Of a stretch of DNA of 35,862 nt, positions 15,336-33,111 are shown piece by piece. Each line of letters begins with the position of its first letter. The stretch's first letter is position 1. This DNA comes from an uncultured Pseudomonadota bacterium (GTDB lineage: Bacteria > Myxococcota_A > UBA796 > GCA-2862545). A program made the translations under genes and the position numbers. Under the pieces are notes generated by a model, which saw only the letters and a list, made by a program, of their open reading frames with translations, had not been told where the DNA came from and did no database searches. The DNA lies in assembly GCA_903861005.1 (NCBI GenBank), contig CAIOSP010000195.1:1-35862 (forward strand). The letters are read 5' to 3'.

Positions 15336-16727
15336 CTACCAGTACACGAACTCCAGCTGGTACTTGTGGATCGAGTACGCGCTGTTCGTGAACAGGAAGG
15401 TGTCCCCGGTGCCGGGGTCACTCCACACGTCGAGGTACTCGCTGATCGAGTAGGTGGGGTTCACGTTGGCGACCGCAAACACGCTCGCGATGGCGCCGTC
15501 AGCCGAGTAGACCATGACCTCCGTCCCGGTCCGGCGGAAGTACATCCGGTCCTGCGCGTCGATCGCGAACCCCGTGTTCGTCTCAAGCGCCATCACCACC
15601 GGCGCCTCCGACACGAAGGTCCCGCCGTCAAAGATGTCGATGCGGTTGAGGTCGACGTCGAAGACGAACAGGCGCCCGGTGCTGTCGTACTCGGCGGTGT
15701 AAGGGCTGGTGAGCTGGCCCGGCTCCGTGCCAAACACGCCGAACTGCCCGACGTAGTCTGCGGTGGACTTGGTCGTGAGCAGCACCTCGTGCGCCGCCGC
15801 CGTCGCGATCGTGCCCATCGGCGAGAGGTTCTGCACGGACCCGTAGAGGTTGACCGTCGCCACCTCGTCGCCGACCTTCGACACCGCGAAGTGGTTCGCG
15901 CTGTTCAGGTTCGTCGAGTTGTTGAGCATCTTGTACGCGCCGACCAATGCGCCGTCGCCGTCGTACTTGCGCAGCACCCAATCGCCCCACACGTAGACGT
16001 CCCCGACCTCATCCACCTCGATGTCCATCGGGTTCGAGTAGGACCACTCCCGCAGGAAATTGCCATCGGGGTCCAGCTTCTGGACGCGGTCGTTCACGAA
16101 GTCGGCGGCGTAGACGTTGCCGTCGGCGTCCACCGCGATGTCGCCCACGTTGTCGAACTGGGCGTCGCCGGTGCCCTGCGTGCCGACCTCCCAGACCTCG
16201 GTCGCGACGATGTGCGGGACCTCTGGCTGACAGGTCGCGCTGCAGCCGTCGCCGTCGTCCTGGTTGGAGTCGTCACACGCCTCCTCGGCGTCGGTGACGC
16301 CGTCGCCGCATGCAGGCAGCGCGCAGTTCAAGCGGCAGGCATCGGGCGTGGTGTCGCTGTTCGCGGCGGCGTCATCACACGACTCGTCCGCGTCCATCAC
16401 GCCGTCACCGCACGTCGCCTCCACGCAGCTGGTGCGGCACGCGTCGGCGGTCGTGTCGCTGTTGGCGTCCCCGTCGTCGCAGACCTCGATGGTGAGCGGA
16501 TCGACGATCCCGTTTCCGCATGTCTCGTCGGACAGGCAGTCCGCCGAGCACCCATCGCCGCCCACGACGTTGCCGTCGTCGCACAGCTCGTCGTCGTCCA
16601 CCACGTCGTCGCCACACGCGGCGTCCGGGTTGGTGTCCGGATCCTCGGGCTTGCAGCCCGCCAGCGCAAACGTCGCCGCCAGCACCAGGACCAGCGGACT
16701 CACACGGAGAGACAGGTTCGGGACCAT
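15336..16727 (-). CDS. Lipoprotein with Myxococcus-type Cys-rich repeats and NHL-like propeller
   Basis: 463-aa exported lipoprotein. The ATG at 16727 has a strong AGGGAGGT site and yields a signal peptide with lipobox LAGC (Cys25). Residues ~38-170 contain four repeats of the Myxococcus Cys-rich type (CGDG...E.CDDGN...GDGCS..C), which are thought to form disulfides. Residues ~178-463 have NHL-like strands ([47 protein letters not shown]), suggesting a beta-propeller on the cell surface. Its ligand is unknown. The ribosome binding site lies in the 3' arm of a 9-bp hairpin, so translation may be controlled. A MORN-like fragment lies just downstream. Confidence 0.88.
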
Positions 16728-16734
16728 CGTAGAC

Positions 16735-16760
16735 CTCCCTTGGGTGGAGATCCAAGGGAG
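16735..16760 (-). promoter_or_regulatory. Hairpin sequestering the ribosome binding site of the 15336-16727 gene
   Basis: In the minus-strand transcript CUCCCUUGG pairs perfectly with CCAAGGGAG (16752-16760 with 16735-16743) around an 8-base loop. The 3' arm contains most of the AAGGGAGGU ribosome site and ends 7 bases before the ATG. When folded it should block ribosome entry. Such a fold suggests control by temperature, an RNA-binding protein, or a small RNA, but chance cannot be excluded. Confidence 0.55.
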
Positions 16761-16913
16761 CACCGGTCGAAGTGCGTCACCGCGGCGACGTCGCTGCGGC
16801 ACGAGCCTGCGCGCGCCAACCCCCGTCGGGATCAAGCGCCTTCGTGGGTGTGTCTCTGTCTCCAACTCGTGTTGCTGTGGGAGTGGAGCTGAGCAACGCG
16901 CATGCCACCTACG

Positions 16914-17345
16914 TCAGCGGCGGGTGGAAACCACGGCCTCCACCAGCCGCGCGTTCACCGCGCCGTACATGTCACCGTGGCGCGCCCCGAGCACCCGCGG
17001 CACCAGCGGCGCGAGCAGCCCGACGAAGGTCTCGTGGTGGGTGATCACGCAGCCGTCGCCGTCTGGCCGCAGCGTGAAGCCGTGCACCACGTCCAGCAGG
17101 CCGCGCACGCCGCCGCGCCACGCCAGCGCGCGGGCTGGCTCCACCGTCACCACGCGCACCGTCACGTGACGCGTCGCGCCGCGCGCGTGCAGCGCGAGCG
17201 TCCACCGCGCACCCAACTCCAGCGCCGCGGGCGACACCGGCGACACCGTGTTCCAGCGCGACCAACCCGGCAGGTCAGCGAGCACCGACCACACCGCCTC
17301 GCAGGGCGCGTCCACGCGGGTCTCAGCTAAAAAGCGCAGCGTCAT
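16914..17345 (-). CDS. SRPBCC/START-like domain protein
   Basis: 143-aa single-domain protein of the polyketide cyclase/dehydrase-like SRPBCC superfamily, which forms a deep hydrophobic pocket for ligands. Typical features are the N-terminal strand and helix with [19 protein letters not shown], a central Arg/Val-rich sheet, and the C-terminal long helix ([14 protein letters not shown]). Members often bind lipids or aromatic compounds, or act as coupled activators, and the ligand cannot be predicted. It is 35 bases downstream of the subtilase gene on the same strand, so the two could be co-transcribed. Confidence 0.8.
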
Positions 17346-21377: not shown

Positions 21378-21974
21378 GTGCCCAAGATCGTCGATCACGA
21401 CAAGCAGCGTGAAGCGCTCCTCGACGCGAGCTTCCGTTTGTTCGCCGAGGGCGGCTACGACGCCGCGACCATGCGCAAGATCGCGGCGGCTGCGGGCGTG
21501 AGCACCGGCGCGCTCTACCACTACTTCCCCGACAAGCCGTCGATCCTGGCCGCCATGTTCGACCTGCTCACCCGCCGCGACATCGCGCGTGTGCAGGGTC
21601 AGCTGCCGCTGGAGGCGCCGGTGCCCGCGCGCATCGCGGCGCTGTTCGCGTTCCTGCGCGAGAACGTCGAGTACCTGCGCGCGCTCTTGAGCCTGGCGCT
21701 CGAGGTCTACCGGCACGAGCCGGGCAGCGCGTCGCGCGCGTACGTGCAGACCGCGCTGCGGAGCTATCGGACGGCCATGGCCGACATTCTGGGCGTCGAC
21801 GGCACGCTGGCCGAGATGGCGTTCACCTTCCTGCTCGGATCGCTCACCTACGGCACGCTCGACCCCGACGGCCTGGACCTGGCGCAGGCGGAGACGTTTG
21901 TGCAGGGCGTGTGGACCCGCTTCGCCGCGGCTCAGGGCGGGCCCGTGCCTGCGTCAGGCTCCGCCGCGGGGTAA
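21378..21974 (+). CDS. TetR/AcrR family transcriptional regulator
   Basis: 198-aa repressor. It begins with a GTG at 21378 and the standard TetR N-terminal helix-turn-helix: REALLDASFRLFAEGGYDAATMRKIAAAAGVSTGALYHYFPDKPSIL (residues ~10-56). The remaining helices form the ligand pocket and dimer surface; the ligand cannot be inferred. It is divergent from the AcsA-like gene, a common arrangement for a regulator and its target, and lies 25 bases upstream of the glycosyltransferase gene on the same strand, which it may also regulate. No obvious long palindrome is present in the divergent gap. Confidence 0.9.
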   Translation: MPKIVDHDKQREALLDASFRLFAEGGYDAATMRKIAAAAGVSTGALYHYFPDKPSILAAMFDLLTRRDIARVQGQLPLEAPVPARIAALFAFLRENVEYLRALLSLALEVYRHEPGSASRAYVQTALRSYRTAMADILGVDGTLAEMAFTFLLGSLTYGTLDPDGLDLAQAETFVQGVWTRFAAAQGGPVPASGSAAG

Positions 21975-25346: not shown

Positions 25347-26540
25347 ATGCGGTGGGCCTTGCTTTCGCTCGGGATGTTGGCGGCGTGTTCGTCCTGGGGC
25401 GGCAAAGGGGAAGACGAGGACCAGGCGCCCCCTGAGCCCGTCACGGTCGTGCAGACCCAGGTGGTCACGGTCGGCGACGTGGCCGATCGCCTGCTGACGA
25501 GCGCCACCATCGAAGCGGCCGCCTCGGCCGACATCACCGCCCAGGCCACCGGCACGGTCGTGTCGATCGCCAAGGACGTGGGCGATCACGTCCGCCGCGG
25601 CGAGCTGCTGGCCGTCATCGACAACGTGCAGCTGGACGCAGGCGCTGAGCGCGCCGACGCTGAGGTCGCCAACCTGCTGGCCCGCGTGGCCGAGGCCGAG
25701 ACGCTCCACACCCGAGGCGCCGTGTCGTCGCGCGAGCTGGAGGACCTGAAGTACCAGCTCTCCACCGCCCGCAGCTCCCAGCGCGAGGCCGACCGCGGCC
25801 GCGGCACCCTGCGCCTCACCGCCCCGTTCGACGGCGTGGTCGCCGCGCGCGACCTGCACGTCGGCGAGCTGACCAGCCCGGCCCGTGTGGCGTTCACCGT
25901 GGTCGATCCAAGCGAGCTGCGCATCCGCGCCCGCCTGCCCGAGCGTGACGTCTCTCGCGTGAAGATCGGACAGATCGCGTCGCTGACCGGCGCCTACGAC
26001 GCGTCTGGCACCGCCACCGCCCACGTCACCCGCATGGCGCCCGTGATCGACGCCACCAGCGGCACGTTTGAGGTGGTGCTGACGTTGGACCCCACTCAGA
26101 CCACGCTCCGGCCCGGCCAGTTCGTCTCGGTCGACATTGAGGTCGACAAGCACACCGGCGTGGTCGTCGTGCCCAAGGACGCCGTCCTGCGCGACCGCGG
26201 CCAGCCGGTCGTGTACCTGGTCGCCGACGCGCCCGCCGAGGCGGTCCACACCGACGAGTCCAAGAAGGACGACGCCAAGAAGGACGAGCCGAAGAAGGAT
26301 GACGCCAAGGACGAGTCGGAGCCCCCCGGCCCCCGCTGGGTGGCCAAGCGCACCGAAGTGCAGACCGGCCTGGGTGACCCCGACCGCATCGAGATCACCG
26401 GCGGCTTGGCGGCCGGCGCGCGCATCGTCGTCGTCGGTCAGTCCAACCTCAAGGACGGCGCCCGCATCCGCGAGCCGGTGGTAGACGCCGCCGTGCCCGC
26501 GACGCCCCCCGCACCCACGGCTGCGACGGAGAATCCGTGA
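25347..26540 (+). CDS. RND efflux periplasmic adaptor (membrane fusion) lipoprotein
   Basis: 397-aa adaptor linking the inner-membrane pumps to the outer-membrane channel. The signal peptide ends in lipobox LAACSS (Cys14). The lipoyl half-motifs are visible (ADITAQATGTVVSIAKDVGDHVRRGELLAVID and, after a short helical hairpin, LRLTAPFDGVVAARDLHVGE), then a beta-barrel domain (LRIRARLPERDVSRVKIGQ) and the membrane-proximal domain. The hairpin (about 60 residues) is short, as in adaptors that act with HAE1-type RND pumps. An unusual Lys/Asp-rich low-complexity insert (residues ~303-328, KKDDAKKDEPKKDD) interrupts the membrane-proximal domain. It is the first gene of the operon; the following GTG overlaps its stop. 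Confidence 0.95.
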   Translation: MRWALLSLGMLAACSSWGGKGEDEDQAPPEPVTVVQTQVVTVGDVADRLLTSATIEAAASADITAQATGTVVSIAKDVGDHVRRGELLAVIDNVQLDAGAERADAEVANLLARVAEAETLHTRGAVSSRELEDLKYQLSTARSSQREADRGRGTLRLTAPFDGVVAARDLHVGELTSPARVAFTVVDPSELRIRARLPERDVSRVKIGQIASLTGAYDASGTATAHVTRMAPVIDATSGTFEVVLTLDPTQTTLRPGQFVSVDIEVDKHTGVVVVPKDAVLRDRGQPVVYLVADAPAEAVHTDESKKDDAKKDEPKKDDAKDESEPPGPRWVAKRTEVQTGLGDPDRIEITGGLAAGARIVVVGQSNLKDGARIREPVVDAAVPATPPAPTAATENP

Positions 26541-29500
26541 ACGAGGAGACCGCGACACCCGAGGAGCGCCACGGCCCGATCGCGATGCTGGTCAACCGAC
26601 CGGTCGCGGTGACCATGCTGTTCTTGGCGGCGCTGGTGTTCGGCTTTGTGTCGTACAAGCGGCTGCCGGTCGAGCTGATGCCCGACATCAGCTACCCGAC
26701 GGTCACCGTGCGCACGACGTTTGGCGGCGCGGCCCCGCAAGAGGTCGAGTCGCAGATCAGCCAGCCGATCGAGGAGGCCTTGGCCACGCTCGACGGGCTG
26801 GTGACGCTGGAGAGCCGCAGCCGCGCGGGCACCAGCGACGTGGTGCTCGGCTTTGACTGGGGCACGGACATGCCGGCGGCGGCGCAGTCCATCCGCGAGG
26901 CGCTGCAGACCACCTTCCTGCCCGAAGACGCCGACCGCCCGCTGATCTTGCGCTACGACCCGTCGCTCGAGCCGTTCATGCGGCTCGCGCTGTCGATCGA
27001 CCCCACCAAGGTCACCACGTCGCCCGAGCAGTCGCTGTTCGTGCTGCGCGAGGTGGCCGAGGACGAGATCCAGCGCCGCCTGGAGGGCATGAAGGGCGTG
27101 GCCGCGGTGCGCGTGCGCGGCGGCCTGGAGCGTGAGGTCCGCATCGCGGTGCACGACGACTGGCTGGTCGCGCGCAACGTCACGCTGGAGGACGTGCGCA
27201 ACGTGCTCACCGGCGAGAACGTGAACGTCGCCGGCGGTCAGGTGCTGGAAGGCGACACCGAGTACCTGGTCCGCACCGTGGCGCAGTTCGCCGATGTGTC
27301 GGACATCCGCGCGCTGCAGATCCGCCGCGCGGACGGCGTGCTGGTGCCGATCACCGACGTGGCCGAGGTCACCGACAGCCACACCGACCGCACCGTCGTC
27401 ACCCACCTGGACGGCGTGGAGGCGGTGGAGTTGGAGATCTTCAAGGAGGCCGACGCGAACATCGTCGAGGTCGCGTCGCAGGTGCAGCACGCGCTCGACG
27501 GCGACGACGTGGGCTTCACCCAGGCGGACGTCGACAAGGCCACCACCGGCAAGGCGCGCGTGGACATGCAGGCGCAGCTCGACGCGGCCAAGGGCCTCAC
27601 CGCGCAGCTCCCGGACGGCGTGCGCTTGGCGGTGCTCGACAACAGCGCGGAGTTCATCCAGTCCGCGATCGACAACCTGCGCGACGCGGTGCTGATGGGC
27701 GGTCTGCTCGCGATCGCCGTGCTGTTCTTGTTTCTGCGCGACTACCGGGCCACCGCGATCATCGGCATCGCCATCCCGATCAGCCTGCTGATGGGCTTTG
27801 GCCCGCTCTACATCGCGGGCGTGTCCCTCAACCTGATGTCGCTCGGCGGCCTGGCGCTGGGCGTCGGCATGCTGGTCGACAACTCGATCGTCGTGCTCGA
27901 GAGCATCCAGCAGTGGCTGGACGCCGGTATGAGCCGACGTGACGCCGCCATCCGCGGCACCACCGAGGTGGCGGCCGCGGTGAGCGCGTCCACCATGACC
28001 ATCGTCGCCGTGTTCCTGCCGATCGGCTTCATCGAGGGCGTCGGCGGCGAGCTGTTCGGCGACCTGGCGCACGCTGTCGTGTGGTCGCACGTCGCGTCGC
28101 TGCCGGTGGCGCTCTTCCTGGTGCCGACGCTGGCCGCCTTCGGCACGGGGATCGCGCTGCCGGACGCGGACGCCGCCCCAGGTCGCGCGTTCGACTTCTC
28201 CGGCGTGACCGCAGAGTGGCGCGAGGGTCGCGCGTGGACCCAGGGCGCGCGGTGGCGGCGCGTCGCGCTCGTGTACTTTGCGCTGCGCGCGCTCGCGCAT
28301 GGACTCGCGGTCGTGGGCAGCGGGCTGGCCTTGCTCGGGTGGGGCCTGCTGCTGCGCGTGCTGTTCGCCGCGTGGGCCTACGTCGTGGTCCCGGTCGGCA
28401 ACCTGTTGTTGATCCCCGCAGACTGGTTCCAGGCCGGCTACCGGCGCTTCGCGGACGCGCACGCCCGCTCGATGGGCTGGATCGTGCGCAAGCCGTGGTC
28501 GGTGGTCGGTGTGGCCATCGCGCTGTTCGCCATCACGACCGCGGTGCTCACCAACCTGGGCACGGAGCTGGTGCCCGAGGTGCACCAGGGCCGCTTCACG
28601 GTCGACGTCGCGATGCCGATCGGCACGCCGCTCGCGCGCACCATCGCCGTCGTGACCGAGGCCGAGCGTCGCATCGCCGCTGACCCCGACGTGGACGCGG
28701 TGTACACGACGATCGGCACCGATCCGCGCGACGAGACGCGCGCCGACGCGGGCGAGCACTCCGCGCGCATTCGCGTGCAGCTCAAGTCCGGCGTGGGCGG
28801 CGACGTGGCCGCGCGCGAGGCCCGCGCGATGTCCGCCATCCGCCGCGAGCTGGCCGAGTCGGTCGGCCTGTCGGCCCGCTTCTCGCGGCCCGCGCTGTTC
28901 AGCTTCCGCACGCCGATTGAGGTGGTGGTGCACGGCGAGGACCTCGACCGGCTGCGCGCGATCGGCGACGAGCTGGTCGCGTCGTTGAGCGCCGTGCCCT
29001 CGCTCGCCGACGTGAAGTCGAGCCTGCTCGCGGGCAACCCCGAGATCCAGATCAGCTACGACCGCGTGCGTCTGGCCCACCTGGGCCTGGACACCAACAC
29101 CGTCGCCCAGCGCCTGCGCGACCGCGTGCAGGGCGTCGTCGCCACGCAGCTGCACGGCGGCGCCGACCGCGTGGACCTGCGCGTGCAGCTCGATGCCGAT
29201 CAGCGCGGCTCCATCCAGGACCTGCGCCAGATCAACATCAACCCGGCGATCGATCCGGCCATCCCCCTCGACGCGGTCGCCACGCTGACCGAGGCCGTGG
29301 GGCCGTCGGAGATCCGCCGCGTCGATCAGCGCCGCGCGGTCGTGCTGTCGGCCAACCTCGCGGGCTTTGACCTAGGCGGCGCCATCCAGTCGGTCACGGG
29401 TGTGCTGCGTGCCGAGGCGCTGGACGCCGACCAGACCTGGGAGCTGGGCGGTCAGGCGCGCGAGCTGTCCTCGTCGGGCAACTCGCTGGTGCTCGCGCTC

Positions 29501-30055
29501 GGCCTCGCCATCTTCCTGGTCTACGTCGTCATGGCCGCCACGTTTGAGAGCGTGATCCACCCGCTGGTCATCCTGCTCACCGTACCGCTCGCGCTGTTCG
29601 GCGTGGCAGGCGGGCTGTGGATCTGCGGCCTTCCGCTGTCGGTGCCTGCGTTCATGGGCATCATCGTGCTGGCTGGCGTCGTCGTGAACAACGCCATCGT
29701 CCTGGTCGACGCGACGAACCGGCTGCGCGAGCGCGGCGAGGCGCGCTTGTCCTCCGTGCGACACGGCGCGGCGCTCCGTCTTCGCCCCATCCTCACCACC
29801 GCGATCACCGCGATCCTCGGCCTGCTGCCGCTGGCCCTCGGGTTTGGCGCAGGCGTCGAGGTGCAGCGCCCGCTCGCCGTCACCGTGATCGGCGGCCTCA
29901 CCACGGCCACGCTGCTGACGCTGGTGGTCATCCCCGCGGTCTACGTGCTGGTCACCGGCGGCACGCGCCCGGATGCCGAGCCGCAGGCGGCGCTGCCCGA
30001 CGCGCGCGTCACGCCCGCACCGGACGCGCCCGCTCCGGAAGGAGCGTCCGCGTGA
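26537..30055 (+). CDS. RND efflux permease 1 of the operon, with extra hydrophobic insert
   Basis: 1172-aa pump subunit, about 120 residues longer than AcrB. It starts at a GTG overlapping the adaptor stop. The two six-helix halves are clear. TM4 reads GMLVDNSIVVLE (Asp448, then Asn449 where AcrB has a second Asp), and TM10 reads VVVNNAIVLVD (Asn1051 where AcrB has its proton-relay Lys). This VDN/VNN version is common in one RND branch. Between TM6 and TM7, residues ~535-643 form an enlarged linker with a hydrophobic stretch (VALVYFALRALAHGLAVVG, then LGWGLLLRVLFAAWAYVVV) that looks like two extra membrane helices. It is paired with a second, different RND gene that follows immediately. Confidence 0.95.
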   Translation: MNEETATPEERHGPIAMLVNRPVAVTMLFLAALVFGFVSYKRLPVELMPDISYPTVTVRTTFGGAAPQEVESQISQPIEEALATLDGLVTLESRSRAGTSDVVLGFDWGTDMPAAAQSIREALQTTFLPEDADRPLILRYDPSLEPFMRLALSIDPTKVTTSPEQSLFVLREVAEDEIQRRLEGMKGVAAVRVRGGLEREVRIAVHDDWLVARNVTLEDVRNVLTGENVNVAGGQVLEGDTEYLVRTVAQFADVSDIRALQIRRADGVLVPITDVAEVTDSHTDRTVVTHLDGVEAVELEIFKEADANIVEVASQVQHALDGDDVGFTQADVDKATTGKARVDMQAQLDAAKGLTAQLPDGVRLAVLDNSAEFIQSAIDNLRDAVLMGGLLAIAVLFLFLRDYRATAIIGIAIPISLLMGFGPLYIAGVSLNLMSLGGLALGVGMLVDNSIVVLESIQQWLDAGMSRRDAAIRGTTEVAAAVSASTMTIVAVFLPIGFIEGVGGELFGDLAHAVVWSHVASLPVALFLVPTLAAFGTGIALPDADAAPGRAFDFSGVTAEWREGRAWTQGARWRRVALVYFALRALAHGLAVVGSGLALLGWGLLLRVLFAAWAYVVVPVGNLLLIPADWFQAGYRRFADAHARSMGWIVRKPWSVVGVAIALFAITTAVLTNLGTELVPEVHQGRFTVDVAMPIGTPLARTIAVVTEAERRIAADPDVDAVYTTIGTDPRDETRADAGEHSARIRVQLKSGVGGDVAAREARAMSAIRRELAESVGLSARFSRPALFSFRTPIEVVVHGEDLDRLRAIGDELVASLSAVPSLADVKSSLLAGNPEIQISYDRVRLAHLGLDTNTVAQRLRDRVQGVVATQLHGGADRVDLRVQLDADQRGSIQDLRQININPAIDPAIPLDAVATLTEAVGPSEIRRVDQRRAVVLSANLAGFDLGGAIQSVTGVLRAEALDADQTWELGGQARELSSSGNSLVLALGLAIFLVYVVMAATFESVIHPLVILLTVPLALFGVAGGLWICGLPLSVPAFMGIIVLAGVVVNNAIVLVDATNRLRERGEARLSSVRHGAALRLRPILTTAITAILGLLPLALGFGAGVEVQRPLAVTVIGGLTTATLLTLVVIPAVYVLVTGGTRPDAEPQAALPDARVTPAPDAPAPEGASA

Positions 30056-33000
30056 GAGACTGGATCCCGCGCAACGCCTACGACCGCCCGGTCGCCGTGC
30101 TCATGGCCTTCTTGGCCATGCTGGTGCTGGGCGTGATGGCGTACAGCCGGATCCCGCTGCAGCTCATGCCGGACGGGTTCGCGTCGCACTACTTGTGGGT
30201 GCAGATCCCGTTCCCGAACGCCACCCCGGGCGAGTCCGACGAGCTGATCGTGCGGCCCATCCTGGAGCAGCTCTCCACGCTGTCGGGCATCAAGAGTGTC
30301 GACTCCGACGCGGACTCCAACTCGGCAAGCTTCAACCTGGAGTTCTACCCGTCCGCGGACATGGACGACGCGTACAACGACGTGGTGGACCGCATCGAGC
30401 GCGCGATGCCCGAGCTGCCGACCGACATCAGCCGCTACTGGATCTACAAGTTCAGCCCGACCGATGAGCCGGTGCTGTGGCTGGGCGTCACGTTCCCCGA
30501 CGACATGGAGGACCCCTGGCACACCGTGGAGAAGGTGGTCATCCCGCGGGTGGACCGCGTCCCTGGCGTGGCGACCGTGGAGACCTACGGGCTTGAGCAG
30601 CGGCGCGTGTTCGTCGACTACGACCGCGAGCAGCTGATCGCGCACGCGGTGGACCTGGGCGACGTGCAACGCAAGCTGCAAACCGACAACTTCCAGATGA
30701 GCGGCGGCCGCGTCGAGGACGGCGGACGCGTGGTGAACGTGCGCTCGCTCGCGCGCTTGGACGACCCGTCGCAGCTGACGCAGTGGCCCGCGCGCGCCGA
30801 CGGCCTGCGGCTCGGCGACTTCGCGGACGTGTCGATCCGCCAGGTGTCCAGCGGCGACATCGGCCGCGTGAACGGCCGCAATGCCGCGGCGCTCGGCGTG
30901 CGCAAGGAGTCGAACGCGAACACGGTCGACGTGACGCGCGACGTGTCGACGGTGCTCGACGAGCTCGCGCACGACCCCGCGGCCGGGGGCTTGCAGTTCT
31001 TCCCGTTCTTCGATCAGGGCAAGCTGATCTCCGAGAGCTTGGGCCAGCTGCAAGAGGCCCTGATCGAGGGCGGCGTGCTGTCGGTCCTCATCCTGTGGAT
31101 CTTCCTGCGCGAGTGGCGCATGACCCTGCTGGTCAGCGCGTCGATCCCGTTCTCGCTGCTGGTGACCGTCGCCATCTTGTGGATGAGCGGCAGCAGCATG
31201 AACCTAGTCGCGATGATGGGCCTGATGCTCGCGGTCGGCATGGTGGCCGACGACGCGATCGTCGTGGTCGAGGCGATCTACCTGCGGCGCGCGCGAGGCC
31301 AAGACACACGCACTGCGGCGATCGAGGGCACGGGCGAGGTGGGCCTCGCGATCCTGGCCGCGACCGCCGCGTCGATGGTGGTGTTCCTGCCGGTCATCCT
31401 GATGACCGAGAACGCGGACTTGGGCGTGCTCATGGCGGTGCTGGGCCTGCCCGTGGTGTGGGCGCGCGCGGTGTCGTTGCTGGTGGCGTGGGTGTTCATG
31501 CCGCTTGCCACGCGCTTTGTGACCACCGCGCAGATCCGGCCTGACCCGGCGTGGCTCGCGTGGTTCACGCGCAAGTACGCGGTGCTGCTGGAGGCGACGA
31601 TGCGCCGGCGCGTCGACTCCGCGATGTTCTTGATCGCCACCCTGATGCTGACCGCGATCCCCATGTCCGGCGTGAAGTGCTCGCCGGGTGACCAGGGCGG
31701 GATCAACGACTTCTCCGTGCGCTTCGTCGTTCCCGCCGAGGCCTCGCCGCCCGAGCGCGACGCGATCGTGCACCGCTTCGAGACCTGGATCGAGTCGCAC
31801 CGCGCCGACTGGGGCATCGACGTGTACCGGGCGACGCTCGACTATGGCAGCACGCGCGGCCGCCTGTCGGTGTACCTCGTCGACGACCCGCCGCTGTCGA
31901 ACGAAGCCATCGTCGACGCCGCAAAGAAGGAGCTGCCCAAGGACATCCCGGGCGTCACCGCGTCGATCGGCTGGGACAGCCAGTCCGGCGACGAGAACCG
32001 CGTCACGCTCACCGTGTACGGCGACGACACCGAGGTGCTGCGCACGCTGGGCGAGGAGATCGCGCGCCGCGTGGAGGACGTGAAGGGCGTGCTGTCGACC
32101 ACGGTGGGGGACTCCGACGGGTCGCGGCGCGAGATCCAGCTGCACCCTGACACCGACGCGCTGCGCCGCTACGGCGTCGACGCATCCACGGTCGGCAACA
32201 CCATCGCGTTCGCCATGCGCGGCAGCACGCTGCACCCGCTGGTGCAGGGCAGCGACGAGCTGGAGGTCGAGACGCGCCTGTCGGTCAAGGACCGCTCGGA
32301 CGTGGGCACGCTGCTCGACTTCCCGATCTTCTCGCCGGCCACCATGAGCTTGGTGCCCGCCCGCGCGCTCACCGACGTGACCTACGGCTCAGGCCCGTCC
32401 AAGATCGAGCGCACCGAAGGCCGCACCGCGCAGGCGATCACGCTCGACCTGGGCAAGGGCGCCGACAAGGCCGAGGTGGTGCCCGCCGTGCACGCCGCGC
32501 TCGCCGACATGGTGCTGCCGCGCGGCTACACCTGGGAGGCCGGCGACTGGGAGGCCGATCAGGACAACGAGATGCAGGCGACCTACTTCGCGCTCGGCAT
32601 GTCGGTCGTGTTCGTCTACCTGCTGATGGGCATCCTGTTCGAGAGCTGGACCCTGCCGTTGGCGATCCTCTCCACGCTCCCCATGGCCGGCATCGGCGCG
32701 TGGTGGGCGCTGTACCTGACCGACACGGCGATGGACACCATGGCAGGCCTGGGTCTGGTCGTGCTGGTCGGCGTCGTGGTGAACAACGGGATCGTGCTGA
32801 TCGACTACGTCGAGCAGCTGCGGCGTGGCGGCATGCCCCGCGACGAGGCGATCCAGGTGGCGGCGGCGCGGCGCCTGCGGCCAATTCTGATGACGGCGCT
32901 GACCACCACGGTGGGGCTCTTCCCGATGGCGGCGGGCTCATCGGAGTTCGTGGGCATTCCGTACGCACCCCTCGGGCGTACGCTGATGGGCGGGATGATC

Positions 33001-33111
33001 ACGTCGACGCTGCTGACGCTGTTATTTGTGCCATACGTGTACGTGGTGTTGGACGACATGCGCGCGTCCGCGCTCGAAGGCGTCCGCTGGGCGCTCCGGA
33101 GAACTTCATGA
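30052..33111 (+). CDS. RND efflux permease 2 of the operon
   Basis: 1019-aa RND permease. The start is GTG at 30052 (GTGA overlap with the preceding stop, AAGGAG upstream), beginning VRDWIPRNAYDRPVAVLMAFLAM; the longer open frame upstream is not coding. TM4 has GMVADDAIVVVE (Asp400-Asp401, the AcrB-like pair), while TM10 reads VVVNNGIVLIDYVE (Asn911, Asn912) without the Lys. The periplasmic porter regions differ clearly from permease 1, so it is not a recent duplicate. Having two unlike RND subunits between one adaptor and one channel suggests a heteromeric pump, as in MdtBC. The length is normal. Its stop overlaps the TolC-like gene by 4 bases. Confidence 0.95.
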   Translation: MRDWIPRNAYDRPVAVLMAFLAMLVLGVMAYSRIPLQLMPDGFASHYLWVQIPFPNATPGESDELIVRPILEQLSTLSGIKSVDSDADSNSASFNLEFYPSADMDDAYNDVVDRIERAMPELPTDISRYWIYKFSPTDEPVLWLGVTFPDDMEDPWHTVEKVVIPRVDRVPGVATVETYGLEQRRVFVDYDREQLIAHAVDLGDVQRKLQTDNFQMSGGRVEDGGRVVNVRSLARLDDPSQLTQWPARADGLRLGDFADVSIRQVSSGDIGRVNGRNAAALGVRKESNANTVDVTRDVSTVLDELAHDPAAGGLQFFPFFDQGKLISESLGQLQEALIEGGVLSVLILWIFLREWRMTLLVSASIPFSLLVTVAILWMSGSSMNLVAMMGLMLAVGMVADDAIVVVEAIYLRRARGQDTRTAAIEGTGEVGLAILAATAASMVVFLPVILMTENADLGVLMAVLGLPVVWARAVSLLVAWVFMPLATRFVTTAQIRPDPAWLAWFTRKYAVLLEATMRRRVDSAMFLIATLMLTAIPMSGVKCSPGDQGGINDFSVRFVVPAEASPPERDAIVHRFETWIESHRADWGIDVYRATLDYGSTRGRLSVYLVDDPPLSNEAIVDAAKKELPKDIPGVTASIGWDSQSGDENRVTLTVYGDDTEVLRTLGEEIARRVEDVKGVLSTTVGDSDGSRREIQLHPDTDALRRYGVDASTVGNTIAFAMRGSTLHPLVQGSDELEVETRLSVKDRSDVGTLLDFPIFSPATMSLVPARALTDVTYGSGPSKIERTEGRTAQAITLDLGKGADKAEVVPAVHAALADMVLPRGYTWEAGDWEADQDNEMQATYFALGMSVVFVYLLMGILFESWTLPLAILSTLPMAGIGAWWALYLTDTAMDTMAGLGLVVLVGVVVNNGIVLIDYVEQLRRGGMPRDEAIQVAAARRLRPILMTALTTTVGLFPMAAGSSEFVGIPYAPLGRTLMGGMITSTLLTLLFVPYVYVVLDDMRASALEGVRWALRRTS

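What the first reader, a model, noticed from the sequence alone, without database searches (positions are those of the whole stretch)
16728..16762. 9-bp hairpin hides the ribosome binding site of the disulfide-repeat lipoprotein
CTCCCTTGG and its perfect complement lie just upstream of the ATG, and the 3' arm is the Shine-Dalgarno sequence. Exact complementarity to the ribosome site is what RNA thermometers and protein-repressed leaders do.
Basis: partly seen in the sequence, partly recalled or inferred. Interest (0 to 1): 0.5.

Follow-up and report, generated by a model that had tools for sequence, protein, structure and literature searches.

The report
Hairpin over lipoprotein gene's ribosome site
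A very stable hairpin in the messenger RNA covers most of the ribosome-binding site of a surface lipoprotein gene; it probably just keeps translation low and does not look like a temperature sensor.

Summary
The inverted repeat is real. On the minus strand CTCCCTTGG (16760-16752), an 8-nt loop and CCAAGGGAG (16743-16735) precede ATG 16727-16725 of a 463-aa disulfide-repeat lipoprotein gene. The 3' arm covers GGAG of the Shine-Dalgarno GGAGGT (16738-16733). A perfect SD-covering stem of 9 bp or more occurs in 2 of 765 ATG/SD genes sampled from this genome (shuffles predict about 0.5): rare, but within what chance allows genome-wide.

A thermometer is not supported: the stem is uninterrupted and stays about 91% paired at 90 C in silico, with no Rfam match. 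CsrA was not found in either genome of the genus. The one ortholog keeps the SD and 8 of 9 pairs; its single stem change is uncompensated, yet the SD stays occluded in prediction because a second anti-SD segment takes over.

The better-supported element is a conserved sigma-54 promoter, TGGCATG-CGCG-TTGCT (16907-16892), 165 nt upstream of the ATG. Best reading: a sigma-54-driven lipoprotein whose leader hairpin is a fixed translational brake, selected or merely tolerated. Regulated opening is not shown.

The parts
16892..16907 (-). sigma-54 -24/-12 promoter, TGGCATG-CGCG-TTGCT
   Evidence: 9 exact motif matches in 5.8 Mb, all 23-165 nt upstream of an open reading frame start; conserved in the ortholog except one spacer base; M. 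xanthus consensus TGGCACG-N4-TTGC(T/A) read in PMC9765219 passages
16728..16881 (-). predicted 5' untranslated leader, about 155 nt
   Evidence: inference: start about 12 nt downstream of the -12 element; no transcript data
16752..16760 (-). 5' arm of hairpin (anti-SD), CTCCCTTGG
16744..16751 (-). hairpin loop ATCTCCAC, which contains a second anti-SD CTCC
16735..16743 (-). 3' arm of hairpin, CCAAGGGAG
16746..16752 (-). alternative anti-SD segment GATCTCC
   Evidence: pairs with GGAGGTC, P 0.002 here and about 0.92 in the G001 ortholog
16732..16738 (-). GGAGGTC, partner of the alternative segment; includes the whole SD
16733..16738 (-). Shine-Dalgarno sequence GGAGGT, 5 nt from the ATG
   Evidence: direct reading
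15336..16727 (-). 463-aa lipoprotein gene: lipobox LAGC, myxo_disulf_rpt (TIGR02232)/DUF4215 repeats, then weak NHL/SGL-like similarity

Best explanation
The gene is transcribed from a sigma-54 promoter at 16907-16892, giving a 5' leader of about 155 nt. In the mRNA the 9-bp hairpin at 16760-16735 forms and pairs GGAG of the SD, so ribosomes must pay about 12 kcal/mol to load, or load only on nascent RNA or by a standby route. The hairpin therefore acts as a fixed brake on a conditionally transcribed surface lipoprotein, with no dedicated sensor. It is either selected for low output or merely tolerated in a weakly expressed gene. Shown: the sequence, predicted occlusion in two species, and the conserved promoter motif. 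Inferred: transcript start, in vivo folding, effect on translation.
For: Hairpin in isolation -16.8 kcal/mol; SD GGAG paired at P 0.99 at 37 C in a 64-nt context and 0.99-1.0 in a 241-nt leader context. SD-opening cost 11.6 kcal/mol against a sample median of 4.2. The ortholog keeps the SD and 8 of 9 pairs, and its SD stays occluded (opening cost 9.3 kcal/mol at 37 C). Hairpin plus SD-ATG differ at 1 of 36 aligned columns, against 13 of 132 in the rest of the leader and 19 of 232 four-fold sites; suggestive only. Start choice: strong SD, ATG and lipobox; an insertion in the ortholog's leader breaks the upstream reading frame. Sigma-54: motif conserved, rpoN present, 13 PF00158 matches at E below 1e-19 among 22.
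Against: No expression, probing or transcript-start data. Only one ortholog, and its stem change is uncompensated. Genome-wide, 2 of 765 such stems against about 0.5 expected is within chance. Whole-leader folding is not exceptional (z -1.48). Folding programs are uncertain on leaders of this length.
Confidence: 0.5

Rival explanations
1. Coincidence: a chance inverted repeat with no regulatory role, kept because the gene needs little translation.
For: About 0.5 such stems expected and 2 found among 765 genes. Only one ortholog, uncompensated change. Lipoprotein genes show no depletion of SD-pairing stems (8 against 6.4 expected at 5 bp or more), whereas other genes do (15 against 35.7), which fits relaxed selection.
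Against: The two stems of 9 bp or more are both in lipoprotein genes (2 against 0.07 expected from shuffles; post hoc, target included). The hairpin and SD region is slightly more conserved than the rest of the leader.
Confidence: 0.3
2. A regulated switch: two mutually exclusive anti-SD helices (CTCCCTTGG and GATCTCC) or a trans-acting RNA or protein open the SD under the condition that activates sigma-54 transcription.
For: Both anti-SD segments are present in both species; the single base difference moves the predicted ensemble from main helix (P 0.99) to alternative helix (P about 0.92) (same in the 64-nt fold).
Against: Both helices occlude the SD, so exchanging them alone gives no ON state; no ligand, small RNA or repressor identified; no Rfam match; CsrA not found in G000 and G001.
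Confidence: 0.12
3. RNA thermometer.
For: SD paired in a hairpin directly before the start codon.
Against: Uninterrupted 9-bp stem; predicted 99% paired at 42 C, 97% at 70 C and 91% at 90 C. Known classes rely on imperfect or weak pairing (PMC11182007, passages).
Confidence: 0.03
4. A DNA-level operator: a 9-8-9 palindrome bound by a dimeric transcription factor downstream of the promoter.
For: Perfect symmetry and a 26-bp span.
Against: No second copy in the own genome at up to 2 mismatches, one weak at 3. In 93 genomes (own included) at up to 2 mismatches there are 20 sites besides this one and its ortholog, against 14 for the reversed control pattern (my count). One arm coincides with the SD, which explains the sequence without a protein.
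Confidence: 0.05

Closest known systems
SD-sequestering 5'-UTR hairpins (general class)
   Same: SD pairs with an anti-SD just upstream of the start codon; predicted to lower initiation.
   Different: No known sensor, ligand or tested effect; a perfect stem.
fourU and ROSE RNA thermometers
   Same: Terminal hairpin holding the SD.
   Different: No U tract, bulged G or mismatches; does not melt in a physiological range in silico; no Rfam match.
CsrA/RsmA-repressed leaders
   Same: A GGA and an SD lie in or beside a hairpin.
   Different: CsrA (PF02599) not found in G000 or G001.
Sigma-54-dependent lipoprotein promoters of Myxococcus xanthus (Nla28 targets such as MXAN881, PMC9765219 passages)
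   Same: TGGC-type -24/-12 element before a lipoprotein gene.
   Different: Enhancer-binding protein and transcript start unknown here; long leader with an SD hairpin.

Membership tests
RNA thermometer (fourU/ROSE) | SD held in an imperfect or weakly paired helix (U tract, bulged G, G-U pairs) | tested here: not met
   Nine uninterrupted Watson-Crick pairs
RNA thermometer (fourU/ROSE) | Helix opens within a physiological temperature range | tested here: not met
   Predicted 91% paired at 90 C (prediction only)
RNA thermometer (fourU/ROSE) | Match to a curated family | tested here: not met
   Rfam: none at gathering score in the window; only an unrelated E 8.8 match in the leader
RNA thermometer (fourU/ROSE) | Heat-induced translation | not testable with these tools
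   needs reporter fusions
SD-sequestering leader | SD base-paired in the predicted leader structure | tested here: met
   in both species
SD-sequestering leader | Pairing conserved by compensatory changes | tested here: inconclusive
   One ortholog, one uncompensated stem change, 8 of 9 pairs kept
SD-sequestering leader | Opening the stem raises translation | not testable with these tools
   needs mutants
CsrA-repressed leader | CsrA encoded in the genome | tested here: not met
   0 of 2 genomes of the genus; 2 of 19 genomes searched have it; assemblies are incomplete
Sigma-54-dependent promoter | GG and GC elements 10 nt apart with TGGCAYG-N4-TTGCW context | tested here: met
   11 of 12 consensus positions, consensus
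Sigma-54-dependent promoter | RpoN and enhancer-binding proteins encoded | tested here: met
   rpoN; PF00158 (this family also rings in control genomes, so only its strong matches count)
Sigma-54-dependent promoter | Transcription start about 12 nt downstream, dependent on RpoN | not testable with these tools
   no transcript data

The most novel reading that the evidence does not exclude
In this Myxococcota-like lineage, lipoprotein genes form a class in which strong anti-SD hairpins are retained while other genes avoid them. Here two interchangeable anti-SD segments keep the site closed through sequence drift, adding a translational lock to sigma-54 control of the cell surface that is opened by an unknown factor.
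Probability: 0.08. Interest if true: 0.5.

Novelty: new member of a known kind. Interest (0 to 1): 0.22.

Why it matters
If real, the gene has two layers of control: conditional sigma-54 transcription and a closed ribosome site, a way to keep a surface lipoprotein at low copy. Separately, the sigma-54 promoter gives a concrete, testable regulatory handle on a family of disulfide-repeat lipoproteins whose regulation is little studied as far as I recall (not searched for exhaustively). As a thermometer claim it should be set aside.

Tried and rejected
Thermometer: rejected on predicted stability and lack of family match. CsrA leader: rejected, no CsrA found in the genus. Transcription terminator: no terminator-like site on either strand at 16600-17000. 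Multi-copy repeat or regulon palindrome: single copy. Leader peptide: the small frame beginning at the ATG inside the sigma-54 motif differs in length and sequence in the ortholog (direct reading). Upstream in-frame GTG start: no SD, and the frame further upstream is broken in the ortholog.

More orthologs: of 93 genomes (own included), 71 match the protein, but beyond the own genome only G001 matches at full length (96% identity); the remaining listed matches cover the repeats or other short stretches (its listing was cut). Leaders of the more distant proteins were checked only crudely: one search read every locus in one orientation, so the minus-strand matches in it are void and I draw nothing from it. 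Orthologs of the two other hairpin genes were sought in 19 genomes each (own included) and none was found with its leader.

Lipoprotein association: found after seeing the second hairpin gene, so post hoc. In one search, of 1179 SD starts I kept the 765 with ATG (414 dropped): stems of 7 bp or more in 3 of 119 lipoprotein genes and 1 of 646 others (Fisher p 0.013); 8 bp or more in 2 of 119 and 0 of 646 (p 0.024). Leaving out the target leaves 1 of 118 at 8 bp or more, which proves nothing. The test on opening energy was flat for all genes (p 0.46) and for the strongest SDs (p 0.46), and marginal in one subset (p 0.045). Gene calls and the lipobox rule are my own simple scripts. An order-wide pattern count (63 genomes) was listed only in part and is not used.

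Papers: passages of PMC9765219, PMC12316311, PMC3162934 and PMC11182007; abstract and outline of PMC2816680; all others only as search listings.

Full report
What is there. The hairpin is on the minus strand: CTCCCTTGG (16760-16752), loop ATCTCCAC (16751-16744), CCAAGGGAG (16743-16735), followed by GTCTACG-ATG with the ATG at 16727-16725. The SD is GGAGGT at 16738-16733, 5 nt from the ATG; the stem takes its first four bases. The gene (15336-16727) encodes 463 aa with a lipobox (LAGC), disulfide repeats (TIGR02232, E 8e-21; DUF4215, E 1e-13) and a C-terminal part with weak NHL/SGL similarity.

Is it more than chance? In one search, 591 SD-preceded genes from 1.06 Mb of the same genome gave 2 perfect SD-overlapping stems of 9 bp or more; shuffling the upstream region gave 15 of 11,820 (0.13%). 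In one search, with 2.04 Mb, ATG starts only and both arms upstream, it was 2 of 765 with about 0.5 expected. The cost of opening the SD ranks 9th of 962. So the hairpin is among the strongest SD occlusions of the sample, but the number of such hairpins does not clearly exceed chance. For the 17 SD-preceded genes of the window the chance is about 2%.

A second case. The other stem of 9 bp or more is 10 bp, again with an 8-nt loop, before another putative lipoprotein (L091:12634, start somewhat uncertain). A third, 7 bp, precedes a lipoprotein at L192:8751. Non-lipoprotein genes avoid SD-pairing stems (15 against 35.7 expected at 5 bp or more), lipoprotein genes do not (8 against 6.4). Avoidance of structure at starts is a known general trend, stronger in GC-rich genomes (PMC2816680, abstract). 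The lipoprotein contrast is post hoc and includes the target; it is equally well explained by relaxed selection.

Comparative test. Beyond the own genome, only G001 of the 93 genomes examined matches the protein at full length in the listing (listing cut), and it alone carries the leader (the other listed hits are 24-65 nt at E 4e-4 to 8e-4 and at most touch the edge of the hairpin). The same contig appears under a name as CANJMY010000079.1 (L041). Between the two, the 5' arm has one T-to-C difference giving a C-A mismatch; loop, 3' arm, SD and ATG are identical. Hairpin plus SD-ATG: 1 of 36 columns differ; the rest of the leader 13 of 132; four-fold sites 19 of 232. This neither proves nor refutes selection on pairing. 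In predicted ensembles G000 uses the main helix (P 0.99; 0.91 at the outer pair) while G001 shifts to GATCTCC/GGAGGTC (P about 0.92), which covers the whole SD; the 64-nt folds agree. Taken alone, the interrupted main helix in G001 is still the more stable of the two (-12.6 against -9.5 kcal/mol), so this shift depends on context and is uncertain.

Thermometer. Paired probability of GGAG is 0.99 at 42 C, 0.97 at 70 C and 0.91 at 90 C. Known thermometers use imperfect or weak pairing (PMC11182007, passages). No Rfam match. I reject this reading as far as prediction allows.

Promoter. At 16907-16892 lies TGGCATG-CGCG-TTGCT. The M. xanthus consensus is TGGCACG-N4-TTGC(T/A), and pilA there has TGGCATG-N4-GTGCT (PMC9765219, passages). 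In the whole own genome the motif TGGCAYR-N4-TTGCW occurs 9 times against 2 for the reversed control, and in G001 5 times against 0. All 9 lie 23-165 nt upstream of an open reading frame start; these include rpoN itself (L091:8240-9553, three sigma-54 Pfam domains) and four lipoprotein genes. Start choice favoured lipoprotein starts among the candidates, so that share leans upward. The motif before this gene is conserved in G001 with one change in the spacer. Twenty-two PF00158 matches occur in the genome, 13 of them at E below 1e-19; this family also rings in genomes without sigma-54, so the weak ones mean little. A sigma-54 link with the cell exterior and lipoproteins has been proposed before (PMC3162934, passages). 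So the leader is probably about 155 nt long and includes the hairpin.

Verdict. Real hairpin, likely real occlusion, most simply a fixed brake or a tolerated structure in a sigma-54-driven lipoprotein gene. Temperature or protein control is not shown.

Noticed in passing
window 16892-16907 (-): Conserved sigma-54 -24/-12 promoter 165 nt upstream of the lipoprotein ATG; one of only 9 exact motif matches in the genome.
   Followed up: yes
L091 8240-9553 (-), motif near L091:9644: rpoN itself is preceded by TGGCACG-GATC-TTGCT, suggesting sigma-54 autoregulation in this lineage.
   Followed up: partly
L258, L260 (G000:C130 53591 and 59972) and L253, L255 (G001:C17): Two more lipoprotein genes with sigma-54 motifs about 60 nt upstream, 6 kb apart on one contig in both species; one encodes a CXXCH-bearing cytochrome-like protein.
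   Followed up: no
L091:12605-12636 (+): 10-bp perfect hairpin with 8-nt loop covering the SD of another putative lipoprotein gene about 3 kb from rpoN; no ortholog with its leader found in 19 genomes.
   Followed up: partly
genome sample, 765 ATG/SD genes: Non-lipoprotein genes avoid SD-pairing stems (15 against 35.7 expected) while lipoprotein genes do not (8 against 6.4).
   Followed up: partly
window 16914-17345 (-): A Polyketide_cyc2 (SRPBCC) protein gene ends six bases upstream of the sigma-54 motif.
   Followed up: no
window 25374-33111 (+): HlyD-type adaptor followed by two large pump-like genes (the first matches ACR_tran), with a TetR-type regulator at 21378-21974: a probable efflux locus.
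   Followed up: no
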